DNA of 6,405 bases, from the NCBI GenBank assembly GCA_030609125.1, contig JAUWCW010000118.1:1-6405 (forward strand). Reading direction: 5' to 3'. A model generated the notes under the pieces. It saw only the letters and a list, made by a program, of their open reading frames with translations. It did no database searches and was not told the origin of the DNA. Each line of letters opens with the position of its first letter. Within the stretch, counting starts at the first letter, position 1. The stretch comes from JAUWCW01 sp030609125 [NCBI: Candidatus Rokuibacteriota bacterium]. Its GTDB lineage: Bacteria; JAUVQV01. Below are positions 214 to 6,405 of the stretch, piece by piece. Position numbers and translations under genes: made by a program.

Positions 214-969
214 ATGACGGATCCGATCCTCGAGGTCAGCAATCTCAGCGTCGTCGTCGGGCGGAAAAAGATACTCAACGAGGTTTCGCTGTCGATCGGC
301 GCGGGCGAGGTTCACGTTCTGCTGGGACCCAACGGCAGCGGCAAGACCACGCTCCTCATGGCCGTCATGGGCATGCCGGGCTACCGCGTCACCGGCGGCA
401 GCATCGTGCTGAGAGGCCGGGAGATCACCGGCATGGGGACCGACGAGCGCTCCCGGGCCGGTATCGCGCTGGCCTTCCAGAAACCGCCCCCCGTGCGGGG
501 CGTCACCCTGAAAGCCCTGGCGGAGTCCCTTCTCGAGGCGAAGGCGGGCGGCAACGGCACGGTCCGCTCCCTCGCGGAGAAGGTCCGCCTGCGGTCCTGT
601 CTGGACCGTGAACTGAACGTCGGACTCTCCGGGGGAGAGCTCAAGCGCTCCGAGATGTTCCAGCTCCTGTGCCTCGAGCCGGAGCTTTCACTCTTTGACG
701 AGCCGGAGTCGGGCGTCGATCTCGACAACATCTCCGTGGTCGGCGAGGCCATGCGCTCCATACTGGGCATGGGCAAGGAGCGGTCCCGCAAGGCTGGCCT
801 CATAGTAACCCACACCGGCCACATCCTCCGCTATGTCCCGGCCGACGCCGGTCACGTTCTCATGGAGGGCTCAATCGTCTGCCGGGGCCATCCGCAGATA
901 CTCTTCGAGGACATCAGGAAGCACGGCTTCGAGGGATGCCGGTCATGCCGCCACTGCCGGTCTATCTGA
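214..969 (+). CDS. sufC: SufC-family Fe-S cluster assembly ATPase (minimal SUF/SMS type)
   Basis: This is an ABC-type ATPase of 251 residues, the usual SufC length. It should dimerise with SufB in the cytosol and use ATP hydrolysis to drive the scaffold changes that allow Fe-S cluster formation. The sequence shows Walker A GPNGSGKT (38-45), Q-loop Gln89, signature LSGGE (138-142), Walker B with Asp162-Glu163, D-loop SGVDLD (166-171) and switch His200. The SGVDLD segment and the LSGGELKR form are typical of SufC rather than of transport ABC proteins. There is no membrane partner, and sufB follows directly. The ATG at 214 is chosen because GGGAGGTGG precedes it by about 6 bases; a TTG at 187 in the same frame lacks such a site. 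Oddity: the C-terminus carries a CxxCxxC motif (Cys242, 245, 248), absent from E. coli-type SufC as I know it. The absence of sufD, sufS and sufE nearby fits the two-component SMS system. Confidence 0.93.
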   Translation: MTDPILEVSNLSVVVGRKKILNEVSLSIGAGEVHVLLGPNGSGKTTLLMAVMGMPGYRVTGGSIVLRGREITGMGTDERSRAGIALAFQKPPPVRGVTLKALAESLLEAKAGGNGTVRSLAEKVRLRSCLDRELNVGLSGGELKRSEMFQLLCLEPELSLFDEPESGVDLDNISVVGEAMRSILGMGKERSRKAGLIVTHTGHILRYVPADAGHVLMEGSIVCRGHPQILFEDIRKHGFEGCRSCRHCRSI

Positions 970-2195
970 AAGAGTGCGCCGGGAGGGCGGAAAAGGCGCG
1001 GAACCGGGCGGCGCCCCTGGGGCCGAACCTCGACCTGGGGCGCTACCGGGCGGAACCCCACGGAGAGAGCCCCCCCCGGAAGCTCGACGATCAGGTCCTC
1101 CGCGAGGCGGCGCTCTCGGCCGGGGTGGACCTTTCCGAAGAAAACCGGGGCGGCACCTACCTGCAGGTCGATCACTCGGTTCTCTGCCGAAACGTTAGGG
1201 AGGCCTGCGAGGGACAGGTGGAGATCTCCCCCGTAGCGGAGGCGCTGGAAAGGGATCCCCGGGCGGAGGAATACTGGTGGAAGGCGGTGGCGGTCGACAG
1301 CGACAAGTACACCGCCTACACGGCTCTCCAGGCGCCGAAGGGATATTTCATCCGCATCCTGCCGGGCTGCCGCGTCGACCTCCCGCTGCAGACCTGCCTC
1401 CTCCTCGCCGCGGAGGGCAGCATCCAGGACGTTCACAACATCATCATTGCCGAAGAAGGTTCGACGGCGCAGGTCATCACCGGGTGTGCCGTGCACCCGT
1501 CGGCGAAGAAGGGCCTGCACCTGGGAGTCAGCGAGTTTTACATCGGCAGGGGAGCCTCCCTGACCTTCACCATGATTCACAGCTGGTCCGGCGGCATCGA
1601 CGTCCGCCCCCGCTCGGCGGCCGTGGTCGAGGAGGAGGGCACCTTCGTCTCCAATTACATCCTCATGAGGCCCGTGCGCTCCCTCCAGATGTACCCCGTC
1701 ACCACCCTGAGGGGCGCCCGGTCGCGGAGCCGCTTTCAGGCCATTGTCATGGGGACGGGCGACTCCCGGATTGACATCGGCAGCCGGACCGTACTCGAGG
1801 GCAAGGCCTGCCGCTCTGAAACCCTCTCCCGGGCCATCGCCTGCGGCCGTTCTTCAATCACGGTCCGGGGTCAGCTGACGGCGCGCACCGACGACTGCCG
1901 CGCCCACCTGGAGTGCCGGGGCATGATAGCCTCCGGAGAGGCGCGCCTGCGGGCCGTGCCGGAGCTGGATGCCGAAGGGGTGCCGCGGGCGGAGTTGAGC
2001 CACGAGGCGGCCATTTCACCGATAGCCGAGGAAGAGGTGGCCTACCTCATGTCCCGGGGCATGACGAGAGAGGAGGCCCTTTCAGCCATCACCCGCGGTT
2101 TCCTCAATGTCGCACTCATGGGACTTCCGCCCGCGCTGCAGGGCTGCGTCGAAGAGCTCATGGCGGTAACGCCGGCGGAAGGGTCGCGTCTCTGA
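945..2195 (+). CDS. sufB: SufB-type Fe-S cluster scaffold protein (SufBD superfamily, SMS-like)
   Basis: This is the scaffold subunit on which Fe-S clusters are built, partner of the SufC encoded just upstream. From the ATG at 945 it has 416 residues, shorter than E. coli SufB (about 495) and closer to the short SufB/SmsB proteins of anaerobes and archaea. The C-terminal beta-helix core is clear. LECRGMI holds Cys324, which aligns by eye with the essential E. coli SufB Cys405. LSHEAAIS holds His353-Glu354, aligning with the HE pair that includes Glu434. The tail, with a VAYLMSRGMTREEA segment, is typical of the family's SufC-contacting end. It overlaps sufC by 25 bases. GAGGG (931-935) is 9 bases before ATG 945 but touches the alternative ATG at 936, so 945 is preferred; the difference is three residues. 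It has no FAD-binding or SufS/SufE partner nearby. Because no sufD exists here, a SufB homodimer is expected (inference). Confidence 0.92.
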   Translation: MPPLPVYLKECAGRAEKARNRAAPLGPNLDLGRYRAEPHGESPPRKLDDQVLREAALSAGVDLSEENRGGTYLQVDHSVLCRNVREACEGQVEISPVAEALERDPRAEEYWWKAVAVDSDKYTAYTALQAPKGYFIRILPGCRVDLPLQTCLLLAAEGSIQDVHNIIIAEEGSTAQVITGCAVHPSAKKGLHLGVSEFYIGRGASLTFTMIHSWSGGIDVRPRSAAVVEEEGTFVSNYILMRPVRSLQMYPVTTLRGARSRSRFQAIVMGTGDSRIDIGSRTVLEGKACRSETLSRAIACGRSSITVRGQLTARTDDCRAHLECRGMIASGEARLRAVPELDAEGVPRAELSHEAAISPIAEEEVAYLMSRGMTREEALSAITRGFLNVALMGLPPALQGCVEELMAVTPAEGSRL

Positions 2196-2210
2196 GAGGT
2201 CGAGGTGAAT

Positions 2211-3200
2211 ATGACGAAAACGGTACCGGCGGCGGCTGACGGGGTTCCGGCCGGCGCCGAAGCCCTGAAGACGCGGATTCGGGAGCTCCTCGGCGACACC
2301 CGGGTGCCTGAAACGATCCGGGTGGTCCGGGACACCAGCAACTTCCTGAACATCGAGCACGGAGACGTTATCCTGCTGTCGGGACGTCACTATCTGGTCC
2401 GCGGAAACGAGCGGGAGGGGCGCTTCGGTCTCGACGAAGAGCCGAAGTTCTGGGTCAAAAGGGCTATCGACCTGGCAAGCGGCGACGTCAAGATCATAAA
2501 GCTCTGCTTCACGGAGAACTTCACCTTCAGCGTCGGTGACATGGCCTTCGACTTTTTCAGGAGCCCCGGCAAGGAAGCGCGCCTCCTGGACAGGGTCAGG
2601 GGACACACAGGATTCATGCAGGGCTTTTCCGTCCGGGACACGGCGGACAACGTGGTGCGGATCATCGAGTTCATCCACGGGGAGACCCTCCACCAGCGCG
2701 TGATCTCCCTGGCTGAAAATCACGAGCGCTACTACCGCGAGTCCTTTCCGGAGATCTTCAGGAACTTTCAGGGGCTGGTGGAAGCCATCCTCTTTCTGCA
2801 CCGTGCGGGGGAGAAGCACGGCGACATCAGGAGGGACCACGTACTGATAGAGAGGGAGACCGGCCTCTACCGCTGGATCGACTTCGATTTCAACTTCCAC
2901 AGCCCATCCAACCCCTTCGGCTATGATCTCTTCGGCCTCGGAAACGTCCTGGCCTTCCTCGCCGGGGGAGGCGACCTGCTGGTGAACGACTTGAGGCGGG
3001 ACCGCCCGGAACTTTGCGAGTCCCTCGTGCCGGGAGACCTGAACATCGTTTTCCGCAACCGCGTCGTCAACCTGCGCAAGGCCTACCCCTACCTGTCGGA
3101 GGATCTCAACAACGTGCTGCTGCGCTTCTCGCGGGCGGCCGAGGTCTATTACGAGAGGACCGACGAGCTGCTCGAGGATCTCTCGGCGGTGGTTCTCTGA
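2211..3200 (+). CDS. Atypical Ser/Thr protein kinase-like protein
   Basis: This is a 329-residue soluble protein with a divergent eukaryotic-type kinase fold. Visible landmarks are: a beta3-type Lys in KIIKLCF (Lys97); a candidate C-helix Glu in KEARLLDRV (Glu122); a hinge-like IIEFIHGETL (about 151-160); a catalytic loop HGDIRRDHVLI with Asp205; a metal-site IDFDF (Asp224); and YDLFGLGNVLAFLAGG (Asp239 onward), matching the subdomain IX helix. Differences from standard kinases are HGD instead of HRD, His in place of the catalytic-loop Asn, DFD instead of DFG, and no clear glycine-rich loop. DFD-like metal motifs also occur in RIO and aminoglycoside phosphotransferase families, so the substrate could be protein or a small molecule. 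There is no transmembrane segment or sensor domain. The first 50 residues are of unknown role. The ATG at 2211 follows GAGG (2202-2205); a GTG at 2205 is an alternative. It starts 15 bases after sufB and ends 13 bases before the usp gene, so it is very likely co-transcribed with both. Confidence 0.8.
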   Translation: MTKTVPAAADGVPAGAEALKTRIRELLGDTRVPETIRVVRDTSNFLNIEHGDVILLSGRHYLVRGNEREGRFGLDEEPKFWVKRAIDLASGDVKIIKLCFTENFTFSVGDMAFDFFRSPGKEARLLDRVRGHTGFMQGFSVRDTADNVVRIIEFIHGETLHQRVISLAENHERYYRESFPEIFRNFQGLVEAILFLHRAGEKHGDIRRDHVLIERETGLYRWIDFDFNFHSPSNPFGYDLFGLGNVLAFLAGGGDLLVNDLRRDRPELCESLVPGDLNIVFRNRVVNLRKAYPYLSEDLNNVLLRFSRAAEVYYERTDELLEDLSAVVL

Positions 3201-3213
3201 AAGGAGCGGAGGA

Positions 3214-3696
3214 ATGAAAACCGGCAGCAAGGAGAGAAGGGACGGAGGGGACCGCCACCTGCTGGTGGCGGTGGATCAGTCCGCCAGTTCCGAGAAGGCC
3301 GTTTTCTACGTGGCCGATTTTCTCGGTGGTCTTTCAGGGTTCCGGGTCACCCTGCTGCACATCCTGGCGGTGCCCCAGGAGGACATCTTCGCGACGGAGG
3401 CGGAGAGCGCCTCCTGGCGGCGGGAGCATGAAGAGGAAGCGCGACGTTTCCTCGGCCGTTACCGTCTCATCCTCACGGAATCCGGATTTTCGGAGGAGCG
3501 GGTCGCGACCAGGGTCCTCGCCCGTGAAGGGGCAACCGTCTCGGACGTCATTCTCGAGGAACACCGGAAGCTGGGGTCCTGCACCATCGTGCTCGGACGC
3601 GGGGGCAAGAGCCGGAAGGAGGAGTTTCTCTTCGGCAGCGTCAGCAACCGCATCGTACACCAGGCCCAGGGCTGCTCGGTCTGGATCATAGAGTAG
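3214..3696 (+). CDS. Universal stress protein (UspA family, ATP-binding type)
   Basis: This is a single-domain UspA protein of 160 residues, probably a cytosolic dimer. The N-terminal strand and nucleotide-site Asp are seen in LLVAVDQSASSEKA (Asp21). The ATP motif G-x2-G-x9-G-S is exact: Gly128, Gly131, Gly141, Ser142, in GRGGKSRKEEFLFGSVS. This places it with the ATP-binding (UspFG/MJ0577-like) subgroup rather than the UspA subgroup that does not bind ATP. The N-terminal 12 residues are a charged, probably flexible extension. The region 55-78 is rich in Glu and Arg and helical. AAGGAG (3201-3206) lies 7 bases before the ATG. As last gene of the suf-kinase operon, it may sense ATP level or be a target of the kinase-like protein; that is inferred from position only. 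Usp proteins are phosphorylated in some bacteria, but no specific site can be claimed here. Confidence 0.9.
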   Translation: MKTGSKERRDGGDRHLLVAVDQSASSEKAVFYVADFLGGLSGFRVTLLHILAVPQEDIFATEAESASWRREHEEEARRFLGRYRLILTESGFSEERVATRVLAREGATVSDVILEEHRKLGSCTIVLGRGGKSRKEEFLFGSVSNRIVHQAQGCSVWIIE

Positions 3697-3823: not shown

Positions 3824-5803
3824 TTACGCGCCGCTGAAAAGGGCGCGCACCTTCGCCAGGAGGTCGGGAGCGCCGATGAGATACAGGATGTCGGCGGGCC
3901 GCAATACGACATCGGCGCCGGGATTTGTAATAGTGCTCTCCCCCCGGCGGATGGCCATGACTGTTACTCCGTGCTTCTTCCTCAGCTGGAACTCGGCGAG
4001 AGTTTTGCCGGCCAGGGGCGCGTTCTCGTCGAGGCGCACGGTAATGAGGTCGGCATCGGGGAAGTATCGCTTGAGATCCATCAACGGCGTCGCTTCGCTG
4101 GAGAGGTTCCGGAACATCTTGTACCCGTCGGTGCGAACCTGGGCGATCAGCTTTTCAATCTCGTCCCGGGGAACGAGGTATCTTGAGAGGACCCGGGAAA
4201 AAATTTCGACGGATGTCTCGAACTCTTCGGGGATGACCTCGTCCGCCCCCAGGCTGCGGAGCTCCTTCACTTCCTGGACGTACCTGGTCCGCACGATGAG
4301 GCACGCACCCGGGTTCAGGTGGTGGACTATCGACGTTATCCGCCGGGCCGCCGCCGGGTCGTTGATGGCGACGACGACGACTCGGGCCGCCTCGATGCGG
4401 ACGTGCTCCAGAACGTTCTCCTGTGATGCGTCGCCGTGAAACACCGGCTCTCCCCGTGCCCTGGCGGCCCTGGCCAGATCGGGAGAGATCTCGATGCACA
4501 CATAGGGGATGCCGGTGATCCTGGCCGTCTGTGCCACGTTGCTCCCGTTGACCCCGAGGCCGATTATCACGAGATGGCGCTCCAGGTCGGCCTTCACCGC
4601 CGGCTCTCCCTTTCCCCTTTTTCGGCCGATCCGGCCGGCGAGGGGGATTCGGGAAGCCAGGTCCGCGACACGGGGGGCGGCCTCCATGATGAAAGGTGTC
4701 GCCGCCATCGTCAGCACGGAAACGGCAAGAAAGAGATGGTACCGCCCTTCGAGCAGCCCGTACTCAAGCCCGACCTTGGAGAGAATGAAGGAAAACTCTC
4801 CCACCTGGCACAGGGCCAGGCCCGTCAGGACGGAGGTGCGGACAGGATAGCGCAAAACCAGGGAAACGGCCGCCGCCACGGCAGCCTTCAGGACCAGGAT
4901 GGCGGCGACAAGGAGGGCAACCTCCACGGGCCGGCTGATAATGAGAGCCGTGTCGAAGAGCATCCCCATGGACACGAAGAAGAAACTCGTGAAGACGTCC
5001 CGGAAGGGGAGGATGTTGCCGAGGGCGTAGTGACTGTACTCCGATTCCGAAATGACGAGGCCGGCCATGAAGGCGCCCAGGGCGAGAGAGAGGCCGACGC
5101 TCGATGTGAGCCAGGCGACGGCGAGGCAGAGGGTGACGATGGTGAGCAGGAAGATCTCCCGGCTGCGGGTCCGCGCCGATTGCCGGAGCAGCCGCGGGAC
5201 GAACCACTTGGCGCCGGCAAAGACGACCACCATTACGCCCCCCGCCTTGACGGCAAAGGCGAGGAGAAACTCGTTGATATTCCCCGCCTCCCCCGCCAGC
5301 AGAGGGGTGAGGAGCATCATCGGGACGATCACGACGTCCTGAAAGACGAGGATTCCCAGGCTCGTTCGCCCGTGAGGGCTGTCGATCTCCCCACTCTTCT
5401 GCAGCAGGCGAAGCACGATGGCGGTGCTCGACAGGGAGAAGAGAAAGCCGAAGAAGATCGCCTCGTTGGCGGGGAGGTCCAGGGCCCTCGCCCCGGCGTA
5501 CACGCCCGCGGTGGTCAAGACCACCTGCAGCGAGCCTCCCAGCAGCACCGCCTTGCGGATCTCGAGCAGCCGCTTGAAGGAAAACTCTATGCCGATGGTG
5601 AACAGAAGCAGGATCACGCCGACCTCGGCCAGGATCTCGACTTCGTGCTGGGACTGGACCAGTCCCAGCCCGTAGGGGCCGGCCAGGGCGCCGGTGACGA
5701 GGAAGCCCACCAGCGCCGGAATCCTGAGCCGGTGGCAGAGGAGTAAGATGGCCACGGAGAGGCCGAATATTATTACGATGTCATTGAGAAGCTGGATTTC
5801 CAT
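3824..5803 (-). CDS. CPA2-family cation/proton antiporter with RCK_N and RCK_C domains (KefB/YbaL-like)
   Basis: This is an inner-membrane monovalent cation (probably K+)/H+ antiporter of 659 residues. The first ~380 residues hold about 12-13 hydrophobic helices of the Na/H exchanger fold. Landmarks are LLLFTIGIEFSFKRL (about 65-79), LVFQDVVIVPMM with Gln155-Asp156 (the QD ion site of KefC-type antiporters), and SESEYSHYALGNILPFRDVF (about 252-271). A basic linker follows, then an RCK_N (TrkA-N) Rossmann domain with GLGVNG (415-420) and Glu438 at the end of strand 2, which favours NAD(H). An RCK_C (TrkA-C) domain covers about 585-655. KefC's regulatory loop reads HALESDIEPF; here it is HYALGNILPF, without the acidic pair, so KefC-style glutathione gating is unlikely. 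The ATG at 5803 has a weak GAGAG site about 7 bases upstream; an in-frame TTG at 5818 is possible. No kefF/kefG partner is adjacent. The gene is divergent from the cytochrome gene and convergent with the usp operon. Confidence 0.92.
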   Translation of the reverse strand: MEIQLLNDIVIIFGLSVAILLLCHRLRIPALVGFLVTGALAGPYGLGLVQSQHEVEILAEVGVILLLFTIGIEFSFKRLLEIRKAVLLGGSLQVVLTTAGVYAGARALDLPANEAIFFGFLFSLSSTAIVLRLLQKSGEIDSPHGRTSLGILVFQDVVIVPMMLLTPLLAGEAGNINEFLLAFAVKAGGVMVVVFAGAKWFVPRLLRQSARTRSREIFLLTIVTLCLAVAWLTSSVGLSLALGAFMAGLVISESEYSHYALGNILPFRDVFTSFFFVSMGMLFDTALIISRPVEVALLVAAILVLKAAVAAAVSLVLRYPVRTSVLTGLALCQVGEFSFILSKVGLEYGLLEGRYHLFLAVSVLTMAATPFIMEAAPRVADLASRIPLAGRIGRKRGKGEPAVKADLERHLVIIGLGVNGSNVAQTARITGIPYVCIEISPDLARAARARGEPVFHGDASQENVLEHVRIEAARVVVVAINDPAAARRITSIVHHLNPGACLIVRTRYVQEVKELRSLGADEVIPEEFETSVEIFSRVLSRYLVPRDEIEKLIAQVRTDGYKMFRNLSSEATPLMDLKRYFPDADLITVRLDENAPLAGKTLAEFQLRKKHGVTVMAIRRGESTITNPGADVVLRPADILYLIGAPDLLAKVRALFSGA

Positions 5804-5826
5804 GGCAGCGGCTCTCAAACAATTCC

Positions 5827-6122: not shown

Positions 6123-6405
6123 ATGCACACGGCCCATGTTCTTCCGCGTACGTTCGTTGCTCTGCTTGTCATTGGACTTTTGTTCCTTCCCGACCACTCC
6201 TCTGCCCTCCCGGCCGCGGAACGTTTTTCTGAAAGGGATGAAGCGTGCCTCCACTGCCACACCGACCCCGGGCTGGTCGAGGGGCCTGAAGGTAGGGAGC
6301 CGCTTCCCCCCGGTATCGACCGCGGCGAATATACCGCTTCGCCCCACCGCGCCCTCGGCTGCGGCGCTTGTCACAGCGAAGCGTCGGCGGAAACTCATCC
6401 GGGCA
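6123..6405 (+). CDS. Multiheme c-type cytochrome, N-terminal part (cut by window edge)
   Basis: The frame is open from the ATG at 6123 to the end of the window, giving 94 complete codons and no stop, so only the N-terminus is visible. Residues 1-31 look like a Sec signal peptide: a basic Arg9, a hydrophobic core FVALLVIGLLFL (11-22), then a small-residue region with possible cleavage near SSA (26-28) or LPA (29-31). Two haem c attachment motifs follow, CLHCH (42-46) and CGACH (80-84). His75 and His92 are possible distal ligands. The spacing and the EYTASPHRALGCGACH wording resemble periplasmic multiheme cytochromes of sulfate- and metal-reducing Desulfobacterota, with more haems expected downstream. 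GGAGGG (6111-6116) lies 6 bases before the ATG. The likely role is periplasmic electron transfer; the redox partner cannot be named from this fragment. Confidence 0.85.
   Translation, partial: MHTAHVLPRTFVALLVIGLLFLPDHSSALPAAERFSERDEACLHCHTDPGLVEGPEGREPLPPGIDRGEYTASPHRALGCGACHSEASAETHPG

What the first reader, a model, noticed from the sequence alone, without database searches (positions are those of the whole stretch)
214..3696. Minimal SufC-SufB scaffold in one operon with a kinase-like protein and an ATP-binding Usp
Seen: four same-strand genes with a 25-base overlap or gaps of 13-15 bases. Known: SufBC without SufD/S/E is the SMS type of Fe-S assembly found in anaerobes and archaea. Inference: the kinase-like protein and Usp could couple Fe-S scaffold activity to energy or stress state, a control layer I do not know to be described for SMS systems.
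Basis: partly seen in the sequence, partly recalled or inferred. Interest (0 to 1): 0.62.

Follow-up and report, generated by a model that had tools for sequence, protein, structure and literature searches.

The report
Kinase–stress-protein pair beside minimal SUF
A little-studied bacterial protein kinase and its own private universal stress protein form a conserved two-gene unit in many anaerobes; here the pair merely happens to sit behind a minimal iron-sulfur assembly operon, so it is probably a stress switch in its own right and not a controller of iron-sulfur assembly.

Summary
In detail: sufC, sufB, a kinase-like gene and a Usp gene lie on one strand with the overlap and gaps described. 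SufCB fits the known SUF-like minimal system (SMS); SufC carries an SmsC-type C-terminal Cys-x-x-Cys. The proposed Fe-S control layer is not supported: sufB lies beside the kinase in 0 of 80 named kinase loci; 10 of 18 chosen kinase genomes, the sister genome included, had no match to the window's SufB; 0 of 43 SufB loci had the kinase within about 1.5 kb. Against this, SufB and kinase co-occur mildly at genome level in Desulfobacterota (odds ratio 2.7).

What is conserved is the kinase–Usp pair: 73 of 80 named loci; 31 of 35 Nitrospirota and 44 of 49 Desulfobacterota kinase genomes. The Usp belongs to a distinct subfamily ('S/T-x-x-E-E-F' inside the ATP motif), 36 of 37 carriers having the kinase. 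The kinase keeps its catalytic residues but scores below known family cut-offs. Best reading: a dedicated kinase/ATP-binding-Usp pair, Usp as substrate or sensor (inferred), joined to sufCB in one lineage. My searches found no paper describing such a pair.

The parts
214..969 (+). sufC / smsC: ABC-type ATPase of the SUF-like minimal system
   Evidence: ABC_tran 6e-22; TIGR01978 sufC 193 bits, cut-off 212.8; a SufC match lies in the fetched stretch of 41 of 43 SufB loci
937..948 (+). codons of the SufC C-terminal C242-x-x-C245, inside the sufC/sufB overlap; both Cys codons overlap the two candidate sufB ATGs (936, 945)
   Evidence: sequence; CxxC in the last 35 residues of 36 of 39 SufC relatives
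945..2195 (+). sufB / smsB scaffold (alternative start 936)
   Evidence: SUFBD_core 4.4e-37; only SUFBD match in the genome
2211..3200 (+). divergent protein-kinase-like enzyme (alternative start GTG 2205)
   Evidence: Pkinase 2e-4, below cut-off; AF2 model pLDDT 89, pTM 0.87; kinase fold, PknB Z 17.7, rmsd 3.6 over 226 residues; catalytic residues invariant in 136 paired sequences
2817..2825 (+). catalytic-loop H205-G206-D207 (HGDIRRDH motif; residue numbers from GTG 2205)
   Evidence: H205, D207, R209, D211 and H212 in 136 of 136
2880..2888 (+). metal-binding D226-F227-D228 (WIDFD motif, DFG-like)
   Evidence: D226 and D228 in 136 of 136
3214..3696 (+). partner universal stress protein with ATP-binding motif G-2x-G-9x-G-S
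   Evidence: Usp 7e-18; AF2 pLDDT 85; MJ0577- and TeaD-like fold
3595..3639 (+). Usp residues 128-142, ATP loop carrying the subfamily signature S/T133-x-x-E136-E137-F138 before G141-S142
   Evidence: S/T133 in 135, E136 in 131, E137 in 134, F138 in 132 of 136; low-confidence, possibly flexible stretch 132-139 in the model

Best explanation
Two separate units share one strand here. Unit 1 (214-2195) is a SUF-like minimal system, SmsC-SmsB, a scaffold for Fe-S clusters. Unit 2 (2211-3696) is a conserved, self-contained gene pair: a divergent protein-kinase-like enzyme with intact catalytic residues and a dedicated ATP-binding Usp of a distinct subfamily. Most likely the two proteins work on each other: the Usp binds ATP through the G-2x-G-9x-G-S loop, and the kinase recognises the S/T-x-x-E-E-F segment of that loop, phosphorylating it (S133 the leading candidate) or being switched by it, so that energy or stress state sets the phospho-state of the Usp. 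Shown: linkage, co-occurrence, conserved active-site residues, folds as predicted. Inferred: physical contact, direction of the phosphotransfer, the site, and the downstream effect. The sufCB linkage was seen in this one genome only and gives at most co-expression.
For: Usp directly follows the kinase in 73 of 80 named loci (3 of the 7 misses have 139 bases or fewer left on the contig). Group surveys: 31 of 35 kinase genomes among 245 Nitrospirota and 44 of 49 among 297 Desulfobacterota have it within 600 bases on the same strand. In 3 of the 44 the Usp is upstream, so it is not simply frozen order. The next most common neighbour family in the cluster analysis occurs in 11 loci, at scattered positions and strands. 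Partner-type Usp (at least 119 bits) occurs in 37 of 297 genomes, 36 of them with the kinase, Fisher p 3e-34 (not corrected for shared ancestry). The own genome's ten other fetched Usp loci score 49 bits or less and lack the EEF motif. Paired distances: Spearman 0.79, n=136, best of 500 permutations 0.15. K99, E124, H205, D207, D226 and D228 in 136 of 136. Precedent: SaUspA is phosphorylated in vitro by kinase ArnC and stimulates PP2A, with binding enhanced by ATP (PMC7693658, passages).
Against: Some kinases have no adjacent Usp: L013/L015 and the L121, L122, L124 group, L056, L059, G187, G359, G319, G419, G454 and four of 11 genes in the broad survey; 15 of 151 distinct kinases in all. One clade has D in place of S142 in the ATP motif (8 of 136; loci). 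S/T at position 133 is also common in ordinary Usps (recalled), so it is not a specific acceptor. No contact, phosphorylation or transcript data exist. Correlated distances and co-occurrence also follow from shared descent. The kinase has a short activation segment and His where the catalytic loop usually has Asn, so its substrate could be a small molecule. SufB is enriched in kinase genomes in Desulfobacterota (28 of 49 against 81 of 248, p 0.002), which the 'accident' reading must put down to lifestyle or ancestry.
Confidence: 0.65

Rival explanations
1. One reading: the kinase and Usp form a control layer for the SufBC scaffold, coupling Fe-S assembly to energy or stress state.
For: In the window the four genes lie within 15 bases of each other or overlap and can be one transcript. 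SufC is an ATPase, so an ATP-sensing partner is conceivable. SufB is mildly enriched in Desulfobacterota genomes that have the kinase: 28 of 49 against 81 of 248, odds ratio 2.7, p 0.002, uncorrected for ancestry.
Against: sufB near the kinase in 0 of 80 named loci; no match to the window's SufB in 10 of 18 chosen kinase genomes, including the sister genome, nor in 21 of 49 Desulfobacterota kinase genomes; 0 of 43 SufB loci carry the kinase within about 1.5 kb. The genome also has an IscU-type scaffold elsewhere.
Confidence: 0.08
2. The Usp is not the substrate but the sensor subunit: ATP- or AMP-bound Usp binds and switches the kinase, which phosphorylates other proteins.
For: Usp keeps the ATP-binding motif in most members (G141 136 of 136, S142 127 of 136). 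SaUspA activates phosphatase PP2A and binds it better with ATP (PMC7693658, passages). Both gene orders occur.
Against: The D142 clade may have lost ATP binding yet keeps the pair. Nothing shows contact.
Confidence: 0.3
3. The kinase acts on a small molecule (APH/Kdo-kinase-like chemistry) and the Usp binds the product or cofactor.
For: HGD-xxx-DH and IDFD with a short activation segment resemble small-molecule kinases (motif likeness recalled); one of 44 members matches Kdo kinase at 5.5e-4.
Against: 34 of 44 members match Pkinase at E up to 0.01; structural top hits are PknB, Stk1 and GAK, though unlisted families are not excluded.
Confidence: 0.2

Closest known systems
SUF-like minimal system SmsC-SmsB (Methanocaldococcus jannaschii, PMC12192291; passages read)
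   Same: two-gene CB arrangement, C-terminal Cys-x-x-Cys of SmsC, no second SUFBD gene in the genome
   Different: below curated NCBIfam cut-offs; the upstream SufC Cys (C223) does not align by eye with Mj C218; lies in a bacterium that also has an IscU-type gene
SaUspA with kinase ArnC and phosphatase PP2A, Sulfolobus acidocaldarius (PMC7693658; passages read)
   Same: an ATP-binding Usp that is a kinase substrate in vitro and touches Ser/Thr phospho-signalling
   Different: no dedicated, genetically linked kinase is reported in the passages read; relevance of the phosphorylation called unknown there
M. tuberculosis Rv2623 phosphorylated at Thr237, read by Rv1747 (as cited in PMC7693658, passage)
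   Same: phosphorylated ATP-binding Usp
   Different: two-domain Usp (recalled); partner is an FHA-domain transporter
Hanks-type bacterial kinases such as PknB and Stk1
   Same: overall fold (Z 17-18 over about 226-228 residues), catalytic Lys, Glu and Asp residues
   Different: about 20% identity over the aligned part; HGDIRRDH and IDFD motifs, short activation segment, conserved N-terminal DT-x-F...GDV block; Pkinase score below cut-off

Membership tests
SUF-like minimal system (SMS) | adjacent smsC-smsB genes | tested here: met
SUF-like minimal system (SMS) | no second SUFBD gene (no SufD) | tested here: met
   1 PF01458 match in own genome, 92% complete
SUF-like minimal system (SMS) | Cys-rich C-terminal region of SmsC with CxxC | tested here: met
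   C242-x-x-C245 at the window SufC end; also in 36 of 39 relatives; feature from PMC12192291 passages
SUF-like minimal system (SMS) | curated models NF052511 SmsB / TIGR01978 SufC over cut-off (a naming aid, not a biological definition) | tested here: not met
   150 of 650 bits and 193 of 212.8 bits; the models do not name it, so I claim 'SMS-type', not a named SmsB
SUF-like minimal system (SMS) | no sufS, sufE or sufA in the operon | tested here: inconclusive
   none in the window, but the contig begins at base 1, upstream unseen; sufS not searched genome-wide
Protein kinase (Hanks-type / protein-kinase-like) | catalytic Lys, Glu, catalytic-loop Asp and DFG-like Asp | tested here: met
   K99, E124, D207 and D226 in 136 of 136; roles assigned from motif position (recalled)
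Protein kinase (Hanks-type / protein-kinase-like) | kinase fold | tested here: met
   AF2 model pLDDT 89; VIA-align Z 17.7 to PknB, 226 aligned, rmsd 3.6
Protein kinase (Hanks-type / protein-kinase-like) | Pfam Pkinase gathering score | tested here: not met
   21.2 of 31.7 bits; 34 of 44 relatives match at E up to 0.01
Protein kinase (Hanks-type / protein-kinase-like) | phosphotransfer to protein | not testable with these tools
   needs biochemistry
Universal stress protein, ATP-binding type | Usp domain over cut-off | tested here: met
   66 bits, cut-off 24
Universal stress protein, ATP-binding type | G-2x-G-9x-G-S/T motif | tested here: met
   G128-R-G-G131-x9-G141-S142
Universal stress protein, ATP-binding type | ATP binding measured | not testable with these tools
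   needs biochemistry

The most novel reading that the evidence does not exclude
A dedicated kinase-Usp signalling pair, not described in the papers my searches found, in which the kinase reads or phosphorylates the ATP-lid loop (S/T-x-x-E-E-F) of its own Usp, so that nucleotide occupancy and phosphorylation of one small protein are coupled: a portable energy/stress switch spread among Nitrospirota, Desulfobacterota and rarer phyla.
Probability: 0.38. Interest if true: 0.68.

Novelty: new variant of a known kind. Interest (0 to 1): 0.46.

Why it matters
Universal stress proteins are widespread and few have a known partner or biochemical role; the SaUspA paper says only a few responsible kinases were identified (PMC7693658, passage). 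A Usp subfamily that nearly always travels with its own kinase gives a concrete partner, a candidate site and cultured hosts (for example Desulfosarcina alkanivorans, L054) in which to ask what Usp phosphorylation does. It also clears a false lead: the pair is not a general controller of SMS Fe-S assembly.

Tried and rejected
Defence-system reading: PADLOC hits to MkoA and PD-T4-6 are weak (best 5e-6, 23 bits) and confined to the kinase core; Usp has none. Kinase–Usp fusion: the longest open frame looked at (L159, 683 aa) is a GC-rich extension ahead of the kinase, not a Usp fusion; a Usp lies about 1.1 kb upstream there. Other long frames had Usp in a separate ORF. tRNA or Rfam element in the window: none found. 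Larger conserved neighbourhood: apart from kinase and Usp, the most common neighbour family occurs in 11 loci at scattered positions and strands. The first ORF-cluster count gave 68 adjacent pairs of 85 loci, window included; tblastn and HMM counts replaced it, because ORF picking had dropped real Usps. Families not listed by VIA-align are not excluded.

Full report
What is there. The window is one whole contig of a 2.3-Mb, 376-contig draft genome. On the plus strand it carries sufC (214-969), a sufB-type gene (945-2195), a kinase-like gene (2211-3200) and a Usp gene (3214-3696), with a 25-base overlap and gaps of 15 and 13 bases. A Kef-type antiporter follows convergently and a cytochrome gene is cut by the contig end. 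All four genes have high third-position GC, 0.81-0.86.

The Fe-S half. SufC and SufB match ABC_tran and SUFBD_core and score below the curated NCBIfam cut-offs for SufC, SufB and SmsB. The genome has one SUFBD gene, so no SufD was found, and one IscU-type gene elsewhere (its neighbourhood is). SufC ends with C-R-S-C near its C-terminus, matching the Cys-enriched C-terminal region reported for SmsC (PMC12192291, passages); 36 of 39 SufC relatives examined have a C-x-x-C in their last 35 residues. So the SMS label is reasonable. The two CxxC codons sit in the gene overlap and share bases with the two possible sufB start codons (sequence).

The kinase half. A scan of contigs of 84,980 species' genomes with a five-sequence kinase alignment gave 305 relatives, of which the best 80 were kept, mainly from Nitrospirota and Desulfobacterota by their record titles. 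Usp follows the kinase on the same strand within 400 bases in 73 of 80; three of the seven misses run off the contig. SufB is found in 0 of the 80; 58 of them hold at least 2.5 kb upstream of the kinase. The hits called SufC are distant (24-32% identity) and read as generic ABC ATPases.

Because those 80 were the best matches, I surveyed evenly drawn genomes of two phyla (named here from the record titles of their centres, Candidatus Magnetobacterium casense and Desulfosarcina alkanivorans). Nitrospirota: 35 of 245 have the kinase. 27 of the 30 loci fetched and 4 of the 5 further genomes have adjacent Usp, 31 of 35 in all; three lack it, and in G187, whose kinase is split over two contigs, none lies in the 1.5 kb after the C-terminal piece. 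Desulfobacterota: 49 of 297 have the kinase. 36 have Usp within 600 bases on the same strand, 33 downstream and 3 upstream, and 8 more have a divergent Usp found on closer look: 44 of 49. One more (G446) has it 1.1 kb upstream; G319, G359, G419 and G454 have none adjacent. A broad draw gave 8 of 386 genomes with 11 kinase genes, 7 with Usp within 600 bases and 4 without; in three genomes of one family one copy has a Usp and the other does not. The surveys overlap: G816 and G088, and G024 and G357, give matches at identical places, and L122 lies in the genome of L013. Over the loci held, after removing 18 identical kinases and pieces under 250 residues, 136 of 151 were paired.

Specificity. The partner Usp is its own subfamily. 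In 297 Desulfobacterota, 37 genomes have a Usp of at least 119 bits against its profile, and 36 of these have the kinase; at 100 bits it is 40 of 52. The window genome has 13 Usp domain matches; the ten other Usp loci fetched score 49 bits or less, one with no match, and none has the E-E-F signature. Kinase and Usp distances correlate (Spearman 0.79, n=136; permutation maximum 0.15), which shared descent alone could also give.

Structure and motifs. The kinase model (pLDDT 89, pTM 0.87) has a kinase fold: PknB Z 17.7. K99, E124, H205, D207, D226 and D228 are invariant in 136 sequences. The catalytic loop reads HGDIRRDH, with His where the usual Asn stands (family knowledge, recalled), and only about a dozen residues separate D228 from the invariant D241. 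The Usp model (pLDDT 85) resembles MJ0577 and TeaD; its 132-139 loop is low-confidence and holds S/T133, E136, E137 and F138, each conserved in at least 131 of 136.

Reverse test for sufCB. The window's SufB has a match in 109 of 297 Desulfobacterota genomes. Of 43 SufB loci fetched (13, the 30 best) none has the kinase in the fetched stretch, up to about 1.5 kb each side; one has an unrelated, low-scoring Usp (L185, 32 bits). Ten of 18 kinase genomes that I chose have no match to the window's SufB at E 0.001, including sister G001; a more distant SufB could be missed by this single-sequence search. Against my reading, kinase and SufB co-occur more than expected in Desulfobacterota: 28 of 49 kinase genomes against 81 of 248 others, odds ratio 2.7, p 0.002, with no correction for ancestry. 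In the 5 of these 28 genomes where both lie on one contig they are 154 kb to 1.26 Mb apart; the other 23 have them on different contigs. I read this as shared lifestyle or ancestry, but it was not tested.

Interpretation. Conservation attaches the kinase to the Usp, not to sufCB. I take the sufCB linkage as a lineage-specific placement of the pair behind smsCB, giving co-expression at most; an assembly error in a draft genome is not excluded. The likeliest working model is a dedicated kinase–Usp pair, the Usp as substrate (S133 loop) or as nucleotide sensor. The nearest precedent is SaUspA, phosphorylated in vitro by ArnC and an activator of PP2A (PMC7693658, passages).

Literature. Searches gave no listing that describes a linked kinase–Usp pair or a Usp/kinase link to SufBC; one search listed only 15 of 170 papers and 10 of 11. 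I read only passages of three papers (PMC12192291, PMC8401546, PMC7693658); the library lacks most subscription journals, so this is weak evidence of absence.

Noticed in passing
934-969: The SufC CxxC Cys codons (937-939, 946-948) overlap the two candidate sufB ATGs (936, 945): cluster-ligand codons and the partner's start codon share bases. Overlapping sufC/sufB open frames also appear in many relatives, whose starts were not examined.
   Followed up: partly
L249-L251, L253, L255-L258: Divergent partner Usps keep S/T-x-x-E-E-F but have G-D instead of G-S/T at the end of the ATP motif, suggesting lost or altered ATP binding while still paired with the kinase.
   Followed up: partly
L013, L015, L121, L122, L124: Some Nitrospirota have the kinase without adjacent Usp; in L013 and L015 an isocitrate-dehydrogenase-like gene follows (name from sequence, recalled).
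   Followed up: no
L217, L218 (G359, G395): Partner-type Usp (178 bits, EEF motif) without a kinase alongside; G359 has the kinase on another contig, G395 had no kinase match.
   Followed up: no
G025, G726, G864 (loci L242-L247): Genomes of one family carry two kinase copies, one with Usp and one without; in L242, L244 and L247 the Usp domain sits in the C-terminal part of a longer open frame.
   Followed up: no
L038, L040, L048, L049, L051, L052, L073: In these seven loci the pair is followed by an aroB-like gene and a RibD-type reductase-like gene on the same strand (clusters 22 and 16; names recalled from the sequences).
   Followed up: partly
G061-phylum survey: Genome-level enrichment of SufB among kinase-bearing Desulfobacterota (28 of 49 against 81 of 248) without any gene linkage seen; cause unknown.
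   Followed up: partly
3824-5818 (-): Kef/CPA2-type antiporter with TrkA_N and TrkA_C domains, convergent to Usp.
   Followed up: no
6123-6405 (+): Start of a probable multihaem c-type cytochrome (CxxCH motifs; weak Cytochrome_C7 match), cut by the contig end.
   Followed up: no
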